The translations under genes were made by a program, and so were the position numbers. Shown here one piece after another: positions 48,981 through 54,163 of a stretch of DNA of 64,000 nt. Origin of the DNA: Pedobacter sp. SYSU D00535 (GTDB lineage Bacteria; Bacteroidota; Bacteroidia; Sphingobacteriales; Sphingobacteriaceae); assembly GCF_017355855.1 (NCBI RefSeq), contig NZ_JAFEWD010000003.1, positions 62,001 through 126,000 of the forward strand. Direction: 5' to 3'. Every line of letters starts with the position of its first letter. Position 1 is the stretch's first letter. The notes under the pieces are model-generated. The model saw nothing but the letters and a program-made list of their open reading frames with translations. It had not been told where the DNA came from and made no database searches.

Positions 48981-49017
48981 TCCGGGCGGCTATTCGGCCA
49001 CCCGGATCATTTTTTTA
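48981..49017 (+). terminator. Terminator of the AsmA-like gene
   Basis: TCCGGG and CCCGGA (48981-48986 and 49001-49006) with an inner GGC/GCC pair form a stem with one mismatch and a 6-nt loop, followed by a T-run that reaches into the end of the convergent ilvE gene. Confidence 0.8.
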
Positions 49018-50079
49018 TATCACGTAGTTCCAGTCAAACTCGTCAGGAGCAAGACCGTAACGCATATCTGTAAGTATTTTCAAAGCTTTGCTTGAGAACT
49101 GATCAGCAGTAGCTTCAGGCAGGTGATACAGCTCGCCTTCGTAGCCGATCGTCGCAATGGAAGTAACAGTAGCAGCTGTTCCAACTCCAAAGGCTTCCGT
49201 TAGTTTACCAGCTTTCAGGCCTTCAATAACTTCGGCTACCGAAACCCTTCGCTCTTCTACTGGTACTCCCCAATTCCGTGCAAGTGTAAGTACCGAGTCA
49301 CGTGTAACTCCGTTTAATATAGTGTCTCTGGTTGAGGGCGTTACCAGGGTGCCGTCGATCACGAACATTACGTTTGCAGCTCCCAGCTCTTCTATGAACG
49401 CATGGTCCTTCCCATCTGTCCAGATGACTTGATCGAACCCTTCTTTTAATGCTTCCTGCGCAGGGAAAAGAGAACCTCCATAATTGCCTCCCGCCTTCGC
49501 AAATCCGAATCCTCCTTCGCTTGCACGCGAATACTTGTTCTCGATTTTAACCTTCAGCGGCTTGGCAAAGTAGGCGCCTACCGGACAGGTCAAAATCATA
49601 TACTTATAGCTCTTTGATGGCTGTACTCCAAGATAGGGGTCGGTAGCAAACATGAAAGGGCGGATATACAGCGAGTGGTTGGCAGCGTCAGGAACCCAAT
49701 TCCTGTCTAAATCTACCAGTGCCGCAATGCTTTTAACGAAGATTTCTTCTGACAGTGCCGGCATACACATACGGGCAGCCGACAAGTTGAAGCGCTGGGC
49801 GTTTTTATAAGGGCGGAAAACGACTATTTTACCGTCTTTTTGTTTGAAAGCCTTTAGTCCCTCAAAAAAGGTCTGGCCATAATGTAATGAGGCCATTGCC
49901 GGACTGAAAGAAAGATTGCCGTAAGGAACAATCTCAAAGTTTTTCCATTCGCCATTATCGTAATCCGCAACGAACATATGGTCAGAAAAGATCTTACCAA
50001 AAGGCAGATTGCTAAAGTCTGTTTCGGGTAATTTAGAGGTAGTAGTTTTTGAAATTTTTATATCAAGTGTATCGGCCAC
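49015..50079 (-). CDS. ilvE: Branched-chain amino acid aminotransferase
   Basis: IlvE makes Leu, Ile and Val from their keto acids with glutamate, with pyridoxal phosphate. The 354-residue protein is fold-type IV: the PLP-binding lysine is in the KIENKYSRASEGGFGFAKAGGNYG region around residue 180-200, and EELGAANVMFVIDG (about 232) and GVTRDSVLTLARNWG (about 259) are typical of the class II IlvE used by Bacteroidota. The start is a GTG. crcB lies upstream on the same strand with a gap of 80 bp. The terminal codons share DNA with the T-run of the convergent terminator. Confidence 0.95.
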   Translation of the reverse strand: MADTLDIKISKTTTSKLPETDFSNLPFGKIFSDHMFVADYDNGEWKNFEIVPYGNLSFSPAMASLHYGQTFFEGLKAFKQKDGKIVVFRPYKNAQRFNLSAARMCMPALSEEIFVKSIAALVDLDRNWVPDAANHSLYIRPFMFATDPYLGVQPSKSYKYMILTCPVGAYFAKPLKVKIENKYSRASEGGFGFAKAGGNYGGSLFPAQEALKEGFDQVIWTDGKDHAFIEELGAANVMFVIDGTLVTPSTRDTILNGVTRDSVLTLARNWGVPVEERRVSVAEVIEGLKAGKLTEAFGVGTAATVTSIATIGYEGELYHLPEATADQFSSKALKILTDMRYGLAPDEFDWNYVI

Positions 50080-50543: not shown

Positions 50544-51836
50544 CTAATAGAGCACCCGGAATTTAATCGTGTGATCTATTTGTTTTAGTTCCTTCAATAC
50601 TTGTTTGTCGTACTGCGCACTCACATCCGTAATCGCGTAACCAATTTGCTGATTCGTCATCAGGAACTGTCCCAGGATGTTGATGTTATGACGAGCGAAT
50701 ACCTGGTTTATCTGGGCCATGATACCAGGAACGTTGCTGTGGATATGGATCAAACGATGGGCACTTGCAATCTTAGGCAATTGAAGATTAGGGAAATTCG
50801 TGCTTAGATAGGTGTCTCCTTTATTGATGAAATCTGCCATCCGTTTGGGGATAAACTGGCTGTTCCGTGGGTTTTGTTTCGGATCATCAAAAACGACAAT
50901 ACCCATCTCCGTTGCTATATCCATGGTAATATTTTCCCGACTATGACCGAGGTATCCAATGGTTTTTAACTTTACAGCCCGCTCCAGTTGATGATCTTCC
51001 AGCTTCTGTCCGTCCGCCAATAGTAACATACCTACATCTGCCACATACTTTTCCTCAAAGCTTGTTTTGTGTCTTATTGAGAATCCATCCTTCTTCAAAA
51101 CCTGGATCGCCTGTTCTGGCACGTCTCCTACAATTAAACACAGTATCCGGTTTTTAGGGTAGGATATCGCTCTTGGAAGATTGTTGACATACAGAAACTC
51201 ATCAAAGCTCGGCGTGATATGGTCCGCTTTTTCCAAAATGCTTTGACGGGCGATATTTTCTGTGTATGCATAAAACTTCTGGATCAAACCGGATTCCTTT
51301 AACTGGAAGTCAGAGTATCCGTCGCCAATACCAAAAATATTGCCCTGCAGGTTCAGCTCCCGCAGCAACTTTACTTTGCCACCTTCTTCTGAGAGAGGAT
51401 TGGTATCGTCGTAACCTATAATCTTTCCCTCCTCGTCAAACTTGAAGGTATTGGCATAGATGTTTTCTTGTTTTATATGATAGGGAAGTACTACTGGAGT
51501 AATAAATTCCTTAAATCCGCCCGATACAATTAATACTTCATCTGCATGCTTTTTGAAAAATGCCCTGTTGCGGGAGAAGGAGGAGGAAACCTTTTTCTTC
51601 AGTCTGCTAACCAGCGTTTTCAGGTGATCCTGATTAGCATGAAGAAGTTTTACTCTTTCTGACAAGCTTTGACGGAAAGAAAGACGGCCTTCCATAGCAG
51701 CATTCGTAAGGTCTTCAATCTCCTTATAAATCCTTTCCCTTTCGGGATGATCTTTCAGGGATATACGTACCAACTCATCTAGTGCTTCAACCTGAGTAAA
51801 TGTGCTATCAAAATCGATAATGTAAAAATTCTTCAT
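50544..51836 (-). CDS. SerB-like HAD phosphatase fused to a SerA-derived regulatory region
   Basis: This 430-residue protein has two parts. Residues 1-215 are a HAD-type phosphoserine phosphatase: DFD at 8-10 with T12 (DxDxT motif), S105-G106, K154 and GDGYSD at 171-176 with D172 and D176. Residues 229-430 align end to end with D-3-phosphoglycerate dehydrogenase (SerA): 229-326 is the first substrate-binding lobe (MGIVVFDDP near 311-319), and 338-430 is the ACT domain (STNFPNLQLP, RLIHIHSNVPG, GYAITDV, FRVLY). About 190 residues, the whole NAD-binding and catalytic domain of SerA, are missing between them, so the SerA half cannot oxidise substrate. It probably hydrolyses phosphoserine and senses serine. 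It lies 15 bp upstream of crcB. Confidence 0.85.
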   Translation of the reverse strand: MKNFYIIDFDSTFTQVEALDELVRISLKDHPERERIYKEIEDLTNAAMEGRLSFRQSLSERVKLLHANQDHLKTLVSRLKKKVSSSFSRNRAFFKKHADEVLIVSGGFKEFITPVVLPYHIKQENIYANTFKFDEEGKIIGYDDTNPLSEEGGKVKLLRELNLQGNIFGIGDGYSDFQLKESGLIQKFYAYTENIARQSILEKADHITPSFDEFLYVNNLPRAISYPKNRILCLIVGDVPEQAIQVLKKDGFSIRHKTSFEEKYVADVGMLLLADGQKLEDHQLERAVKLKTIGYLGHSRENITMDIATEMGIVVFDDPKQNPRNSQFIPKRMADFINKGDTYLSTNFPNLQLPKIASAHRLIHIHSNVPGIMAQINQVFARHNINILGQFLMTNQQIGYAITDVSAQYDKQVLKELKQIDHTIKFRVLY

Positions 51837-51893: not shown

Positions 51894-52865
51894 TTAATCT
51901 TTTAAAGCTCTGCAAATCTCTTCAACCGACTTTTTTACAGGCTTATAATGGAACGAGGGGAAATGCCGGAGGAACTTTTCGTTAGAATATTTTAAGCGCT
52001 TGAGCGAGTTCCGTGCCGTATCTCGGGTAAGACCGTAGTCTTTTCCGCTAAATGCAGCAGCAATGGAAGCACCCCTCCAGGCTAATTCCATCATCCATGA
52101 TTTTGCCTCTACACTTGGAATTTTAGTACCGAAACAGGTTGCGGCTTCAACGAAAAGCTCTTTGTATTGCCAGTTTTCTGCATTCAGGATGAAGCGCTCA
52201 GCGCTCAGGTCGCTGTTCATCAGTAAGATCATTGCTCTTGCTACGTCTTCTACATCTACCAGGCCGCAGGACCCCGAAGGATAAAACTTCACACCTTTTC
52301 GGATCATTTCAAAAATTTGCCCGCTGCCCTTCGTCCCGGCTCCTGCACCAATAATTAAGGAAGGATTTACAACGACCGCCTGCAGCCCCTCCGAAATGCC
52401 TCTCCAAACTTCCATCTCACTTTCATATTTGGAGATGGAATAGCCGTGCTGGGTACCATTAAACTCCCAGTGATTTTGTTCGGATACCGGCTTCCCCTCT
52501 TTCGCTTCGCCAAGTGCCGCCACCGAGCTGACGTGAACGAATTTCTCCACTCCGAGGTCAAGTGCCAGATTAACCAGGTGAGCAGTTCCCTCCCGGTTAA
52601 GTTTTAAAAGTTTCTTTTTATCAGATCGCCGAAAGGAGATATAGGCAGCGCAATGGTATATTTTGGTTATTCCCTGGAGCGCGCTTTCCAACGAAAAGTA
52701 GTCAAGAATGTCGGCATTAACCCATTCTACTGTATCAATATCCCGAAGAATAGTTGGAATCACGGAGTCAGGGCGCCTGAGGACACGTACCTGTTCCCCG
52801 GCCAGGGAAAGTTGTTTAACAAGTTCAGAACCTAAAAATCCGGTAGCCCCGGTTACTAATACCAT
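51894..52865 (-). CDS. NAD-dependent epimerase/dehydratase family protein
   Basis: The 323-residue protein is an extended short-chain dehydrogenase: GATGFLG near residues 6-12 is the Rossmann NAD(P)-binding motif, VSSVAALG is the conserved Ser strand, and Y in GYSISKYESE (Y-x3-K) with the Lys four residues later gives the catalytic pair. Substrates of this branch include dihydroflavonol-like or sugar nucleotides, and I cannot pick one. I prefer the ATG at 52863-52865 (MVLVTGATG) over an upstream TTG at 52892. It faces the divergent arginase-like gene, whose extended frame would overlap it. Confidence 0.8.
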   Translation of the reverse strand: MVLVTGATGFLGSELVKQLSLAGEQVRVLRRPDSVIPTILRDIDTVEWVNADILDYFSLESALQGITKIYHCAAYISFRRSDKKKLLKLNREGTAHLVNLALDLGVEKFVHVSSVAALGEAKEGKPVSEQNHWEFNGTQHGYSISKYESEMEVWRGISEGLQAVVVNPSLIIGAGAGTKGSGQIFEMIRKGVKFYPSGSCGLVDVEDVARAMILLMNSDLSAERFILNAENWQYKELFVEAATCFGTKIPSVEAKSWMMELAWRGASIAAAFSGKDYGLTRDTARNSLKRLKYSNEKFLRHFPSFHYKPVKKSVEEICRALKD

Positions 52866-52978
52866 CCGCCCGAAAATTGAAATTGCTTTCAAAAGTATTT
52901 AATAAAGTTGATATTTGGGCGAAACGAAACAGGATATTGCTCGCGCGAAGAAGCGGCAGAAGCAAAAAAGCTCAAACT

Positions 52979-54163
52979 ATGTCATTAGCCGATTTTCTTT
53001 CTCCTTTAGATGCAAAAAAGTTCAACCCGGGCGATGCCTTATACGTCAGCCAGTTGGGTTCTAAAGTGGAAATCTTCTCTAGTGATTTTCCGGATCTCGA
53101 GGAACAAAAGTTTGATATTGCCATTATCGGCGTTTTGGAAGATAGGAATGCGGTGGACAACCAGGGCTGTGGCCTCGGGCCAGATTACGTGCGGGAGAAG
53201 TTGTACAGCCTTTACGAGGGTAGCTATACCACCAAAATTGTGGATCTGGGAAATATTCGCGCAGGTCACCGGGTTGCTGATACTTATATCGCCCTGAAAA
53301 CCGTAGTCACTGAGTTGATTAAAAAGGATATCGTCCCGTTAATTATTGGCGGAGGGCAAGATCTAACGTATGCACAGTACATGGCCTACGAGGATCTCGA
53401 ACAAAAGGCGGACCTGGTGGTGATTGATCCCAAGTTTGATTTAGACGACTCATTTGATGCCGAGTCGATCGAGACCTCATCCAAATCATACCTTAACAAG
53501 ATTTTCCTGCATCAGCCAAACTACCTGTTCAACTTCAGCAATATAGGCTACCAAACCTATTTTGTTAATCAGGAGAGCCTTCGCGTTATGGAGAAGTTAT
53601 TGTTCGACGTGCACCGGCTGGGGGAGTTTACGAATAGTATTCCTCTGGTTGAGCCAATTGTCAGGAATGCCAGCTTGATTAGTTTTGATATTTCTGCTGT
53701 TCGCGCCTCCGATGCCTGTGCAAACGGAAATGCTACACCCAATGGTTTTTATGGGGAGGACGCTTGTCAAATGTGTCGTTATGCAGGAATGAGTGATAAG
53801 CTTACCTCCATAGGCTTTTATGAGTTTAATCCGGCTTACGACAGGAATGGACAAACAGCGATGCTGCTAGCACAAATGATCTGGTACTTTATTGACGGGT
53901 TTTACAACCGTAAAAAGGACTTTCCGCTGCAGCCTAAATCACAATACCTTATATACCGCGCTTCGCTGAAGGATAACTCGCACGAACTCGTCTTCGTAAA
54001 GAGCAAAAAGTCCGACCGCTGGTGGATGCAAGTCCCTTACCCAACCGGGCCTTCCGGAAATGAGCGGTACCATTTAGTGCCCTGCAGATACGAAGATTAT
54101 CAGATTGCCGTTTCAGGAGAGATGCCGGACCTCTGGTGGCGCACTTACCAAAAGCTAATTTAA
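52979..54163 (+). CDS. Arginase/formimidoylglutamase-fold protein with degenerate metal site
   Basis: The 394-residue protein has the ureohydrolase fold but lacks key ligands of the Mn2+ pair. The GGGHS motif reads GGGQD, with Q127 in place of His. The DAHxD motif reads D150-P-K-F-D154, with Lys152 in place of His. The SxDxD motif reads S-F-D237-I-S239, with Ser in place of the last Asp. So three of six canonical ligands are replaced, and hydrolysis of arginine or formiminoglutamate is unlikely. The gene is well preserved (no stops, normal codons), so it probably has another role such as binding. I start it at the ATG (MSLADFLSP) because the frame extends upstream only from a TTG that would overlap the divergent gene. 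A TlpA-like gene starts directly after the stop. Confidence 0.75.
   Translation: MSLADFLSPLDAKKFNPGDALYVSQLGSKVEIFSSDFPDLEEQKFDIAIIGVLEDRNAVDNQGCGLGPDYVREKLYSLYEGSYTTKIVDLGNIRAGHRVADTYIALKTVVTELIKKDIVPLIIGGGQDLTYAQYMAYEDLEQKADLVVIDPKFDLDDSFDAESIETSSKSYLNKIFLHQPNYLFNFSNIGYQTYFVNQESLRVMEKLLFDVHRLGEFTNSIPLVEPIVRNASLISFDISAVRASDACANGNATPNGFYGEDACQMCRYAGMSDKLTSIGFYEFNPAYDRNGQTAMLLAQMIWYFIDGFYNRKKDFPLQPKSQYLIYRASLKDNSHELVFVKSKKSDRWWMQVPYPTGPSGNERYHLVPCRYEDYQIAVSGEMPDLWWRTYQKLI

What the first reader, a model, noticed from the sequence alone, without database searches (positions are those of the whole stretch)
50544..51836. Phosphoserine phosphatase fused to a SerA that has lost its NAD-binding domain
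Seen: residues 1-215 carry all HAD phosphatase motifs of SerB, and residues 229-430 follow SerA from its first substrate-binding lobe straight into its ACT domain, with about 190 residues (the Rossmann/catalytic domain) missing at a precise domain boundary. Known: SerA and SerB are the first and last enzymes of serine synthesis, and the SerA ACT domain binds serine. Inference: serine feedback control has been moved to the phosphatase by keeping only the sensing parts of the dehydrogenase. I do not know whether this architecture has been described.
Basis: partly seen in the sequence, partly recalled or inferred. Interest (0 to 1): 0.75.

Follow-up and report, generated by a model that had tools for sequence, protein, structure and literature searches.

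The report
Serine-making phosphatase carrying a dehydrogenase-derived sensor
A bacterial enzyme for the last step of serine synthesis carries the serine-sensing remains of the enzyme for the first step, from which the working dehydrogenase part has been cut out cleanly; most of a bacterial family shares it, which suggests that serine now controls the end of the pathway rather than its start, though nobody has measured this here.

Summary
The gene is on the MINUS strand (51836-50544, 430 aa): a HAD-IB phosphatase domain (1-215), then SerA without its NAD-binding domain (229-430). Refinement: the cut (325|326 = E. coli SerA 111|305) lies inside the two-part substrate-binding lobe; both halves of the lobe and the ACT domain remain and superpose on E. 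coli SerA (Z 25.7, 1.8 A, 203 residues).

It is not chance: 81 of 90 sampled family genomes carry it. Other families have an intact SerB-SerA fusion of about 630-650 aa; some genomes have separate adjacent genes. The dehydrogenase was lost repeatedly (5 changes on the tree, at least 3 on strong branches), with clean excision in two lineages. In 39 of 39 SerA-dead proteins tabulated the three serine-binding ACT residues are kept and R60 is lost. The window's genome has a separate serC-serA pair whose SerA lacks ACT.

Best explanation: a phosphoserine phosphatase with a serine-sensing pseudo-SerA tail, the likely feedback point of the pathway. Serine binding and its effect are inferred. ACT-controlled phosphoserine phosphatases are known (mycobacterial SerB2), so this is a new variant of a known kind. 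My literature searches found neither fusion described.

The parts
50544..51836 (-). whole gene, 430 aa plus stop: HAD-IB phosphatase + pseudo-SerA
51192..51836 (-). residues 1-215: HAD-IB phosphatase domain; D8, D10, T12, E17, R61, S105, K154, D172, D176 present (their roles are recalled)
   Evidence: (human phosphoserine phosphatase 6hyy, Z 20.9)
51153..51191 (-). residues 216-228: linker; I224-L234 invariant in 36 family sequences and SYPKNRI/SYPKSRI kept in the intact fusions shown; low model confidence (223-226 under 50)
50862..51152 (-). residues 229-325: first half of the SerA substrate-binding lobe; active-site loops (E. coli 60-63, 81-86, 103-109) mostly altered, counterparts of N108 and R110 kept
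50861..50862 (-). excision junction, residues 325|326 = E. coli SerA 111|305; 193 residues (NAD-binding domain with R240, E269, H292) absent
   Evidence: the match breaks at or next to 325/326 in most long fusions
50778..50861 (-). residues 326-353: second half of the lobe (helix 325-339 and return strand)
50547..50765 (-). residues 358-430: ACT domain; H366, N368, N386 = E. coli serine ligands H344, N346, N364
   Evidence: ligand roles from PMC6300728 passages

Best explanation
It is a phosphoserine phosphatase (last step of serine synthesis) whose C-terminal half is a pseudo-SerA: the substrate-binding lobe plus ACT domain of a former SerB-SerA bifunctional enzyme, with the NAD-binding domain excised. 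Proposed working: two chains pair through their ACT domains; serine binds at the ACT-ACT interface; the lobe-ACT unit moves as one body, as in E. coli SerA; through the invariant SYPKNRI linker this changes (most likely inhibits) the phosphatase. The first step is done by a separate ACT-less SerA, so this protein is the likely end-product control point. Shown: domain make-up, fold, junction, conservation, intact fusions in relatives, repeated loss of the dehydrogenase, the separate ACT-less SerA. Inferred: phosphoserine as substrate, serine binding, dimer, direction of the effect.
For: Domains and fold. 81 of 90 family genomes keep it at 63-88% identity. Within 30 family sequences mean pairwise identity is 77.9% HAD, 70.9% lobe, 78.0% ACT. 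39 of 39 SerA-dead proteins tabulated keep H344/N346/N364 and none keeps R60; the review says that PGDHs insensitive to serine have altered these ACT residues (PMC6300728 passages). In E. coli serine binding rotates the lobe-ACT unit against the NAD domain (same passages), which would explain why the lobe stayed. Own genome: only this protein matches SerB TIGR00338 well (E 2.9e-19; next 2.5e-4, partial; none over the cut-off); no other protein resembles it at E 0.001; the three proteins that match the whole NAD-domain profile are 308-316 aa, too short for an ACT, and one lies directly after a SerC-like gene. Intact fusions and adjacent serB/serA genes tie this HAD to serine synthesis. A standalone close relative of the own SerA is present with 85 of 91 SerA-dead fusions, against 24 of 57 intact ones plus 7 ambiguous.
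Against: No biochemistry. SerB equivalog cut-off not met (TIGR00338 66.9 bits against 144.15). 0 of 80 family loci have serC or serA within 3 kb. The E. coli Gly-Gly hinge between lobe and ACT is not kept here or in the intact fusions shown. The ACT triad being invariant is only modestly unlikely given 20 of 73 invariant ACT columns (hypergeometric p 0.018). pTM 0.54: the placement of phosphatase against tail is not predicted. 6 of 91 SerA-dead fusions lack a close standalone SerA at E 1e-60: four in family genomes that are 60-92% complete, but also G405 and G781, 98-99% complete. 9 of 90 family genomes lack the protein, and eight of those nine keep the standalone SerA without a good SerB match. 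The own genome has two His_Phos_1 proteins, a family proposed to include other phosphoserine phosphatases (PMC9026213 passage).
Confidence: 0.62

Rival explanations
1. The tail is only a structural or dimerisation relic: the ACT and lobe hold the phosphatase together but no longer sense serine.
For: The lobe has lost most of its active-site residues; ACT domains persist without binding serine in some PGDHs (PMC6300728 passages); ACT triad invariance alone gives p 0.018.
Against: All three ligand residues are kept in 39 of 39 SerA-dead proteins, from at least three separate losses by starred branches and five on the tree, while serine-insensitive PGDHs elsewhere have them altered.
Confidence: 0.2
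2. The phosphatase acts on another substrate, for example histidinol phosphate; some proteins annotated as phosphoserine phosphatase do so.
For: PMC5764234 passages propose SerB-like proteins as histidinol-phosphate phosphatases in four bacteria; TIGR00338 cut-off not met.
Against: Intact relatives are fused to a SerA with all catalytic residues (57 of 64 long fusions fetched) and adjacent serB-serA genes exist; best structural relatives of the head are phosphoserine phosphatases; no better SerB candidate in the own genome by TIGR00338.
Confidence: 0.1
3. The pseudo-SerA tail acts in trans on the standalone ACT-less SerA (mixed oligomer), returning serine control to the first step.
For: The tail comes from SerA; each of the five lineages with a SerA-dead fusion has at least one genome with a standalone SerA.
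Against: The standalone SerA is a distant relative of the fused one; Type III SerA dimerises through its catalytic domains (PMC6300728 passages), which the tail lacks; no interface evidence here.
Confidence: 0.06

Closest known systems
E. coli SerA (Type II phosphoglycerate dehydrogenase; 2p9e, 1psd)
   Same: Residues 227-430 have the same lobe + ACT fold (Z 25.7, rmsd 1.8 A, 203 aligned) and the same serine ligands
   Different: No NAD-binding domain; R60, R240, E269, H292 absent; no Gly-Gly hinge; fused behind a phosphatase
Human / bacterial phosphoserine phosphatase (HAD-IB; 6hyy, 3kd3)
   Same: Residues 1-216 same fold (Z 20.9 and, for 2-219, 20.7) and catalytic residues
   Different: Below the TIGR00338 SerB cut-off; C-terminal pseudo-SerA tail
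Mycobacterial SerB2 (ACT-ACT-phosphatase; PMC10564941, 5jlp)
   Same: Phosphoserine phosphatase with ACT regulation; serine inhibits (passages)
   Different: SerB2 has two N-terminal ACT domains and a domain-swapped dimer; here one C-terminal ACT on a SerA lobe
Intact SerB-SerA fusion of other families of the class and phylum (627-657 aa, e.g. L127)
   Same: Same order HAD - lobe - ACT; mostly 42-50% identical over about residues 3-325 (G543 39%); similar linker
   Different: Keeps the whole NAD-binding domain and SerA catalytic residues (57 proteins)
Type III SerA of the own genome (L113:1186-2136)
   Same: 2-hydroxyacid dehydrogenase domains
   Different: Complete dehydrogenase without ACT; Type III enzymes are not serine-regulated (PMC6300728 passages)

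Membership tests
HAD-IB phosphatase (TIGR01488) | curated score cut-off 45 bits | tested here: met
   69.5 bits, residues 5-179
Phosphoserine phosphatase SerB equivalog (TIGR00338) | curated score cut-off 144.15 bits | tested here: not met
   66.9 bits; 7 of 14 control genomes also have no hit above it
Phosphoserine phosphatase SerB equivalog (TIGR00338) | phosphoserine phosphatase residues (DxDxT, E, R, SG, K, GDGxxD; roles recalled) | tested here: met
   all present in P0001 and in all 30 family sequences tabulated
Phosphoserine phosphatase SerB equivalog (TIGR00338) | hydrolyses phosphoserine | not testable with these tools
   needs enzyme assay
Type II SerA (phosphoglycerate dehydrogenase) | NAD-binding domain PF02826 with catalytic R240, E269, H292 | tested here: not met
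   domain absent
Type II SerA (phosphoglycerate dehydrogenase) | ACT domain with serine ligands H344, N346, N364 | tested here: met
   H366, N368, N386
Type II SerA (phosphoglycerate dehydrogenase) | substrate-binding lobe fold | tested here: met
   PF00389 E 3.3e-6; structure Z 25.7; but R60 lost
ACT-regulated phosphoserine phosphatase of the SerB2 kind | two N-terminal ACT domains before the phosphatase | tested here: not met
   one C-terminal ACT
ACT-regulated phosphoserine phosphatase of the SerB2 kind | phosphatase activity changed by serine | not testable with these tools
   needs assay

The most novel reading that the evidence does not exclude
An enzyme was turned several times independently into a dedicated metabolite sensor: after SerB and SerA fused, separate Bacteroidota lineages lost dehydrogenase activity and two excised the NAD domain cleanly, leaving a serine-sensing tail that now controls the last step of the pathway and perhaps, by mixed oligomers, the separate ACT-less SerA as well.
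Probability: 0.12. Interest if true: 0.78.

Novelty: new variant of a known kind. Interest (0 to 1): 0.57.

Why it matters
If true, a bacterial family has its serine feedback at the last step, not the first, using parts of the first enzyme. The steps of the change survive in living genomes: adjacent serB and serA genes, intact fusion, dead long SerA, shrunken NAD domain, clean excision. That makes the question of how a catalytic enzyme becomes a pure regulatory domain directly testable by comparing these forms. It also warns that such proteins could be mislabelled as dehydrogenases by their lobe and ACT matches.

Tried and rejected
Chance, or a frameshift or deletion in one genome: rejected, because 81 of 90 family genomes share the form. 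Lobe match as noise: rejected by structure. A single loss of the dehydrogenase: the AU test rejects all short forms in the tree as one clade (p 0.005) and all SerA-dead forms in it as one clade (p 8e-6); caution, L145_G103 and L141_G131 have long branches and lie in an unresolved fork. Operon evidence in the family: none, 0 of 80 loci with up to 3 kb flanks have serC or serA nearby. Literature for either fusion: nine searches gave no paper that, in the listings or the passages I saw, describes a SerB-SerA fusion or its short form. I saw passages only, no whole text, of PMC7311316, PMC5764234, PMC6303947, PMC9026213, PMC6300728, PMC10564941, PMC2705460 (59: a SerA-SerC fusion in oomycetes, not SerB) and PMC1173090. 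The library is open-licence only, so absence there is weak. Pedobacter sp. GW460-11-11-14-LB5 appears in Table 1 of PMC7311316 for DapE only in the passages shown, consistent with serine synthesis there not being counted as a gap; I could not link it to this gene. The plain Foldseek search was not run; only VIA-align. The second structure job was not used.

Full report
WHAT IS THERE. The open frame is on the minus strand, 51836-50544, ATG to stop, 430 aa; the plus strand there has many stops. Pfam finds HAD (7-179), 2-Hacid_dh, the SerA lobe (234-324, 27.3 bits against a cut-off of 24.6) and an ACT domain (362-425), and no NAD-binding domain. NCBIfam's SerA model PRK11790 matches in two stretches (E 4e-45 in all, 154 bits against a cut-off of 404); the HAD-IB subfamily cut-off is met (69.5 against 45), the SerB equivalog one is not (66.9 against 144.15). 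Against solved structures by sequence, the tail finds E. coli-type SerA and the head finds phosphoserine phosphatases.

THE JUNCTION. Aligned with E. coli SerA (NC_000913 b2913), P0001 residue 325 faces 111 and 326 faces 305, so 193 residues are gone. Those hold the NAD site and R240, E269, H292. SerA's lobe is made of two pieces on either side of the NAD domain; both are here, so the cut closes the lobe on itself and leaves a whole lobe and ACT. The AlphaFold2 model (36 sequences; pLDDT 82.8, pTM 0.54) aligns 203 residues of 227-430 with E. coli SerA 7-410 at rmsd 1.8 A, Z 25.7, and 203 residues of 1-216 with human phosphoserine phosphatase at rmsd 2.6 A, Z 20.9. How head and tail sit together is not predicted with confidence.

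DISTRIBUTION. The window's genome has one copy. Of 90 sampled genomes of the same family, 81 have it in one continuous match (one of them partial, 94-430); 9 do not. Titles of the 80 loci kept from genome contigs name Desertivirga, Pararcticibacter, Arcticibacter, Hufsiella, Pedobacter, Daejeonella, Parapedobacter and others, mostly Sphingobacteriaceae (one title says Flavobacteriaceae); the family name is inferred from these titles. Outside the family the match usually breaks at or next to 325/326 with about 190 residues between: the intact fusion. In the phylum sample 49 of 392 genomes matched at 1e-40, in the class sample 78 of 395 at 1e-30; these samples overlap and also hold family members. 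One genome of another family, G405, has the short form at 62% identity and falls in the clade of the family's short forms (100/100; its pairing with L027 inside it is 94/72), while five genomes of its own family visible in the listing have no match at 1e-40: likely transfer. Three genomes of family f14 (G103 whole; G146 split over two frames; G552 on two contigs) also lack the NAD domain; in G103 the lobe is below Pfam's reach.

A GRADED SERIES. I fetched 64 long fusions and tabulated sites. 57 keep R60, S61, K62 and R240, E269, H292. Seven are long but lack R60 and R240: L140, L141, L180, L188, L196, L198, L199; six of them have a shrunken NAD domain (165-170 residues against 191-192), L140 keeps full size. 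Pfam agrees for the two I scanned: the NAD-domain match falls from E 4e-45 in an intact one (L127) to 9e-18 (L199) and 1e-4, under the cut-off (L141). The short ones tabulated are 30 family sequences including the window's, plus L144_G405 and L145_G103. All 39 SerA-dead proteins keep H344, N346, N364; none keeps R60. Lobe loops that line the active site (60-63, 81-86, 103-109; role partly recalled) are near-invariant in the 57 intact and mostly changed in the 39, though N108 stays in 31, P105 in 21 and R110 in 35. Some genomes have adjacent separate genes in the same order, a HAD of the SerB kind and a SerA of 376-414 aa (L156, L204, L205, L154); I saw the ACT match of that SerA only for G145 = L156. 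This looks like the state before fusion.

INDEPENDENCE. A tree of 76 proteins on phosphatase and ACT columns needs 5 changes between intact and lost, at least 3 on starred branches (bootstrap range 4-5); short forms alone need 2. Holding the shorts together is rejected (p 0.005), holding all lost together too (p 8e-6). Long branches (L145_G103 1.45, L141_G131 1.22) make the exact count unsure.

THE REST OF THE PATHWAY. Own genome: nine places match the NAD-domain profile PF02826, seven over the cut-off, but only three over the whole profile: proteins of 315, 308 and 316 aa; the partial ones were not examined. The 316-aa one lies just after a SerC-like gene (name recalled) and has no ACT domain: a Type III SerA, which the review says is not serine-regulated (PMC6300728, passages). 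A close relative of it (E 1e-60 or better) is present in 78 of 82 family genomes with the fusion, the own genome included (the four without are 60-92% complete) and in all, counting G103, G405 and the seven dead long ones, in 85 of 91 SerA-dead cases. Among 57 intact fusions 24 have it, 7 are ambiguous (44-50% identity, E about 1e-77 to 1e-81), 26 do not. Fisher p is about 4e-8 or less, but relatives are not independent, and only the five best candidates per genome were scored. More telling, each of the five lineages with loss has at least one genome with the separate SerA. Exceptions: G405 and G781. SerB: only this protein matches well in the own genome; two His_Phos_1 proteins exist, so another phosphoserine phosphatase is not excluded. 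Of the 9 family genomes without the fusion, 8 keep the standalone SerA and none shows a good SerB match, which this account does not explain.

HOW IT MOST LIKELY WORKS. In E. coli SerA serine's carboxyl binds H344 and its amino group N346 and N364 of the partner chain; binding rotates lobe and ACT together against the NAD domain (PMC6300728 passages). Here the NAD domain is gone and the body on the other side of the moving unit is the phosphatase, joined by a linker (ISYPKNRI) that is invariant in 36 family sequences and nearly so in the intact fusions shown. So serine should act on the phosphatase. Mycobacterial SerB2 shows that a phosphoserine phosphatase with ACT domains can be inhibited by serine (PMC10564941 passages). 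Whether serine inhibits or activates here is inferred, not shown.

WHAT IS KNOWN. ACT-controlled phosphoserine phosphatases, Type II SerA and fusions of serine enzymes are known kinds. The pseudo-SerA tail is, as far as I can tell, a new variant. Nine searches of an open-licence library found no description of either fusion (calls listed under tried and rejected).

Noticed in passing
   Followed up: partly
L144 (G405): The short form in a genome of another family, in the clade of the Sphingobacteriaceae short forms: likely horizontal transfer; this genome has no close standalone SerA.
   Followed up: partly
L141:292-2121 (G131): A long fusion whose NAD domain falls below Pfam's cut-off while HAD and ACT stay intact: a possible living intermediate.
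   Followed up: yes
L156, L204, L205, L154: Adjacent, unfused serB-like and serA-like genes in the same order as the fusion: probable pre-fusion state.
   Followed up: partly
window 49015-50079 and 51894-54163: Two neighbours (an NAD-epimerase-like gene and an arginase-like gene, names recalled) have a match near this gene in 79 of 80 family loci, an IlvE-like gene in 66 of 80; no serC or serA is nearby.
   Followed up: partly
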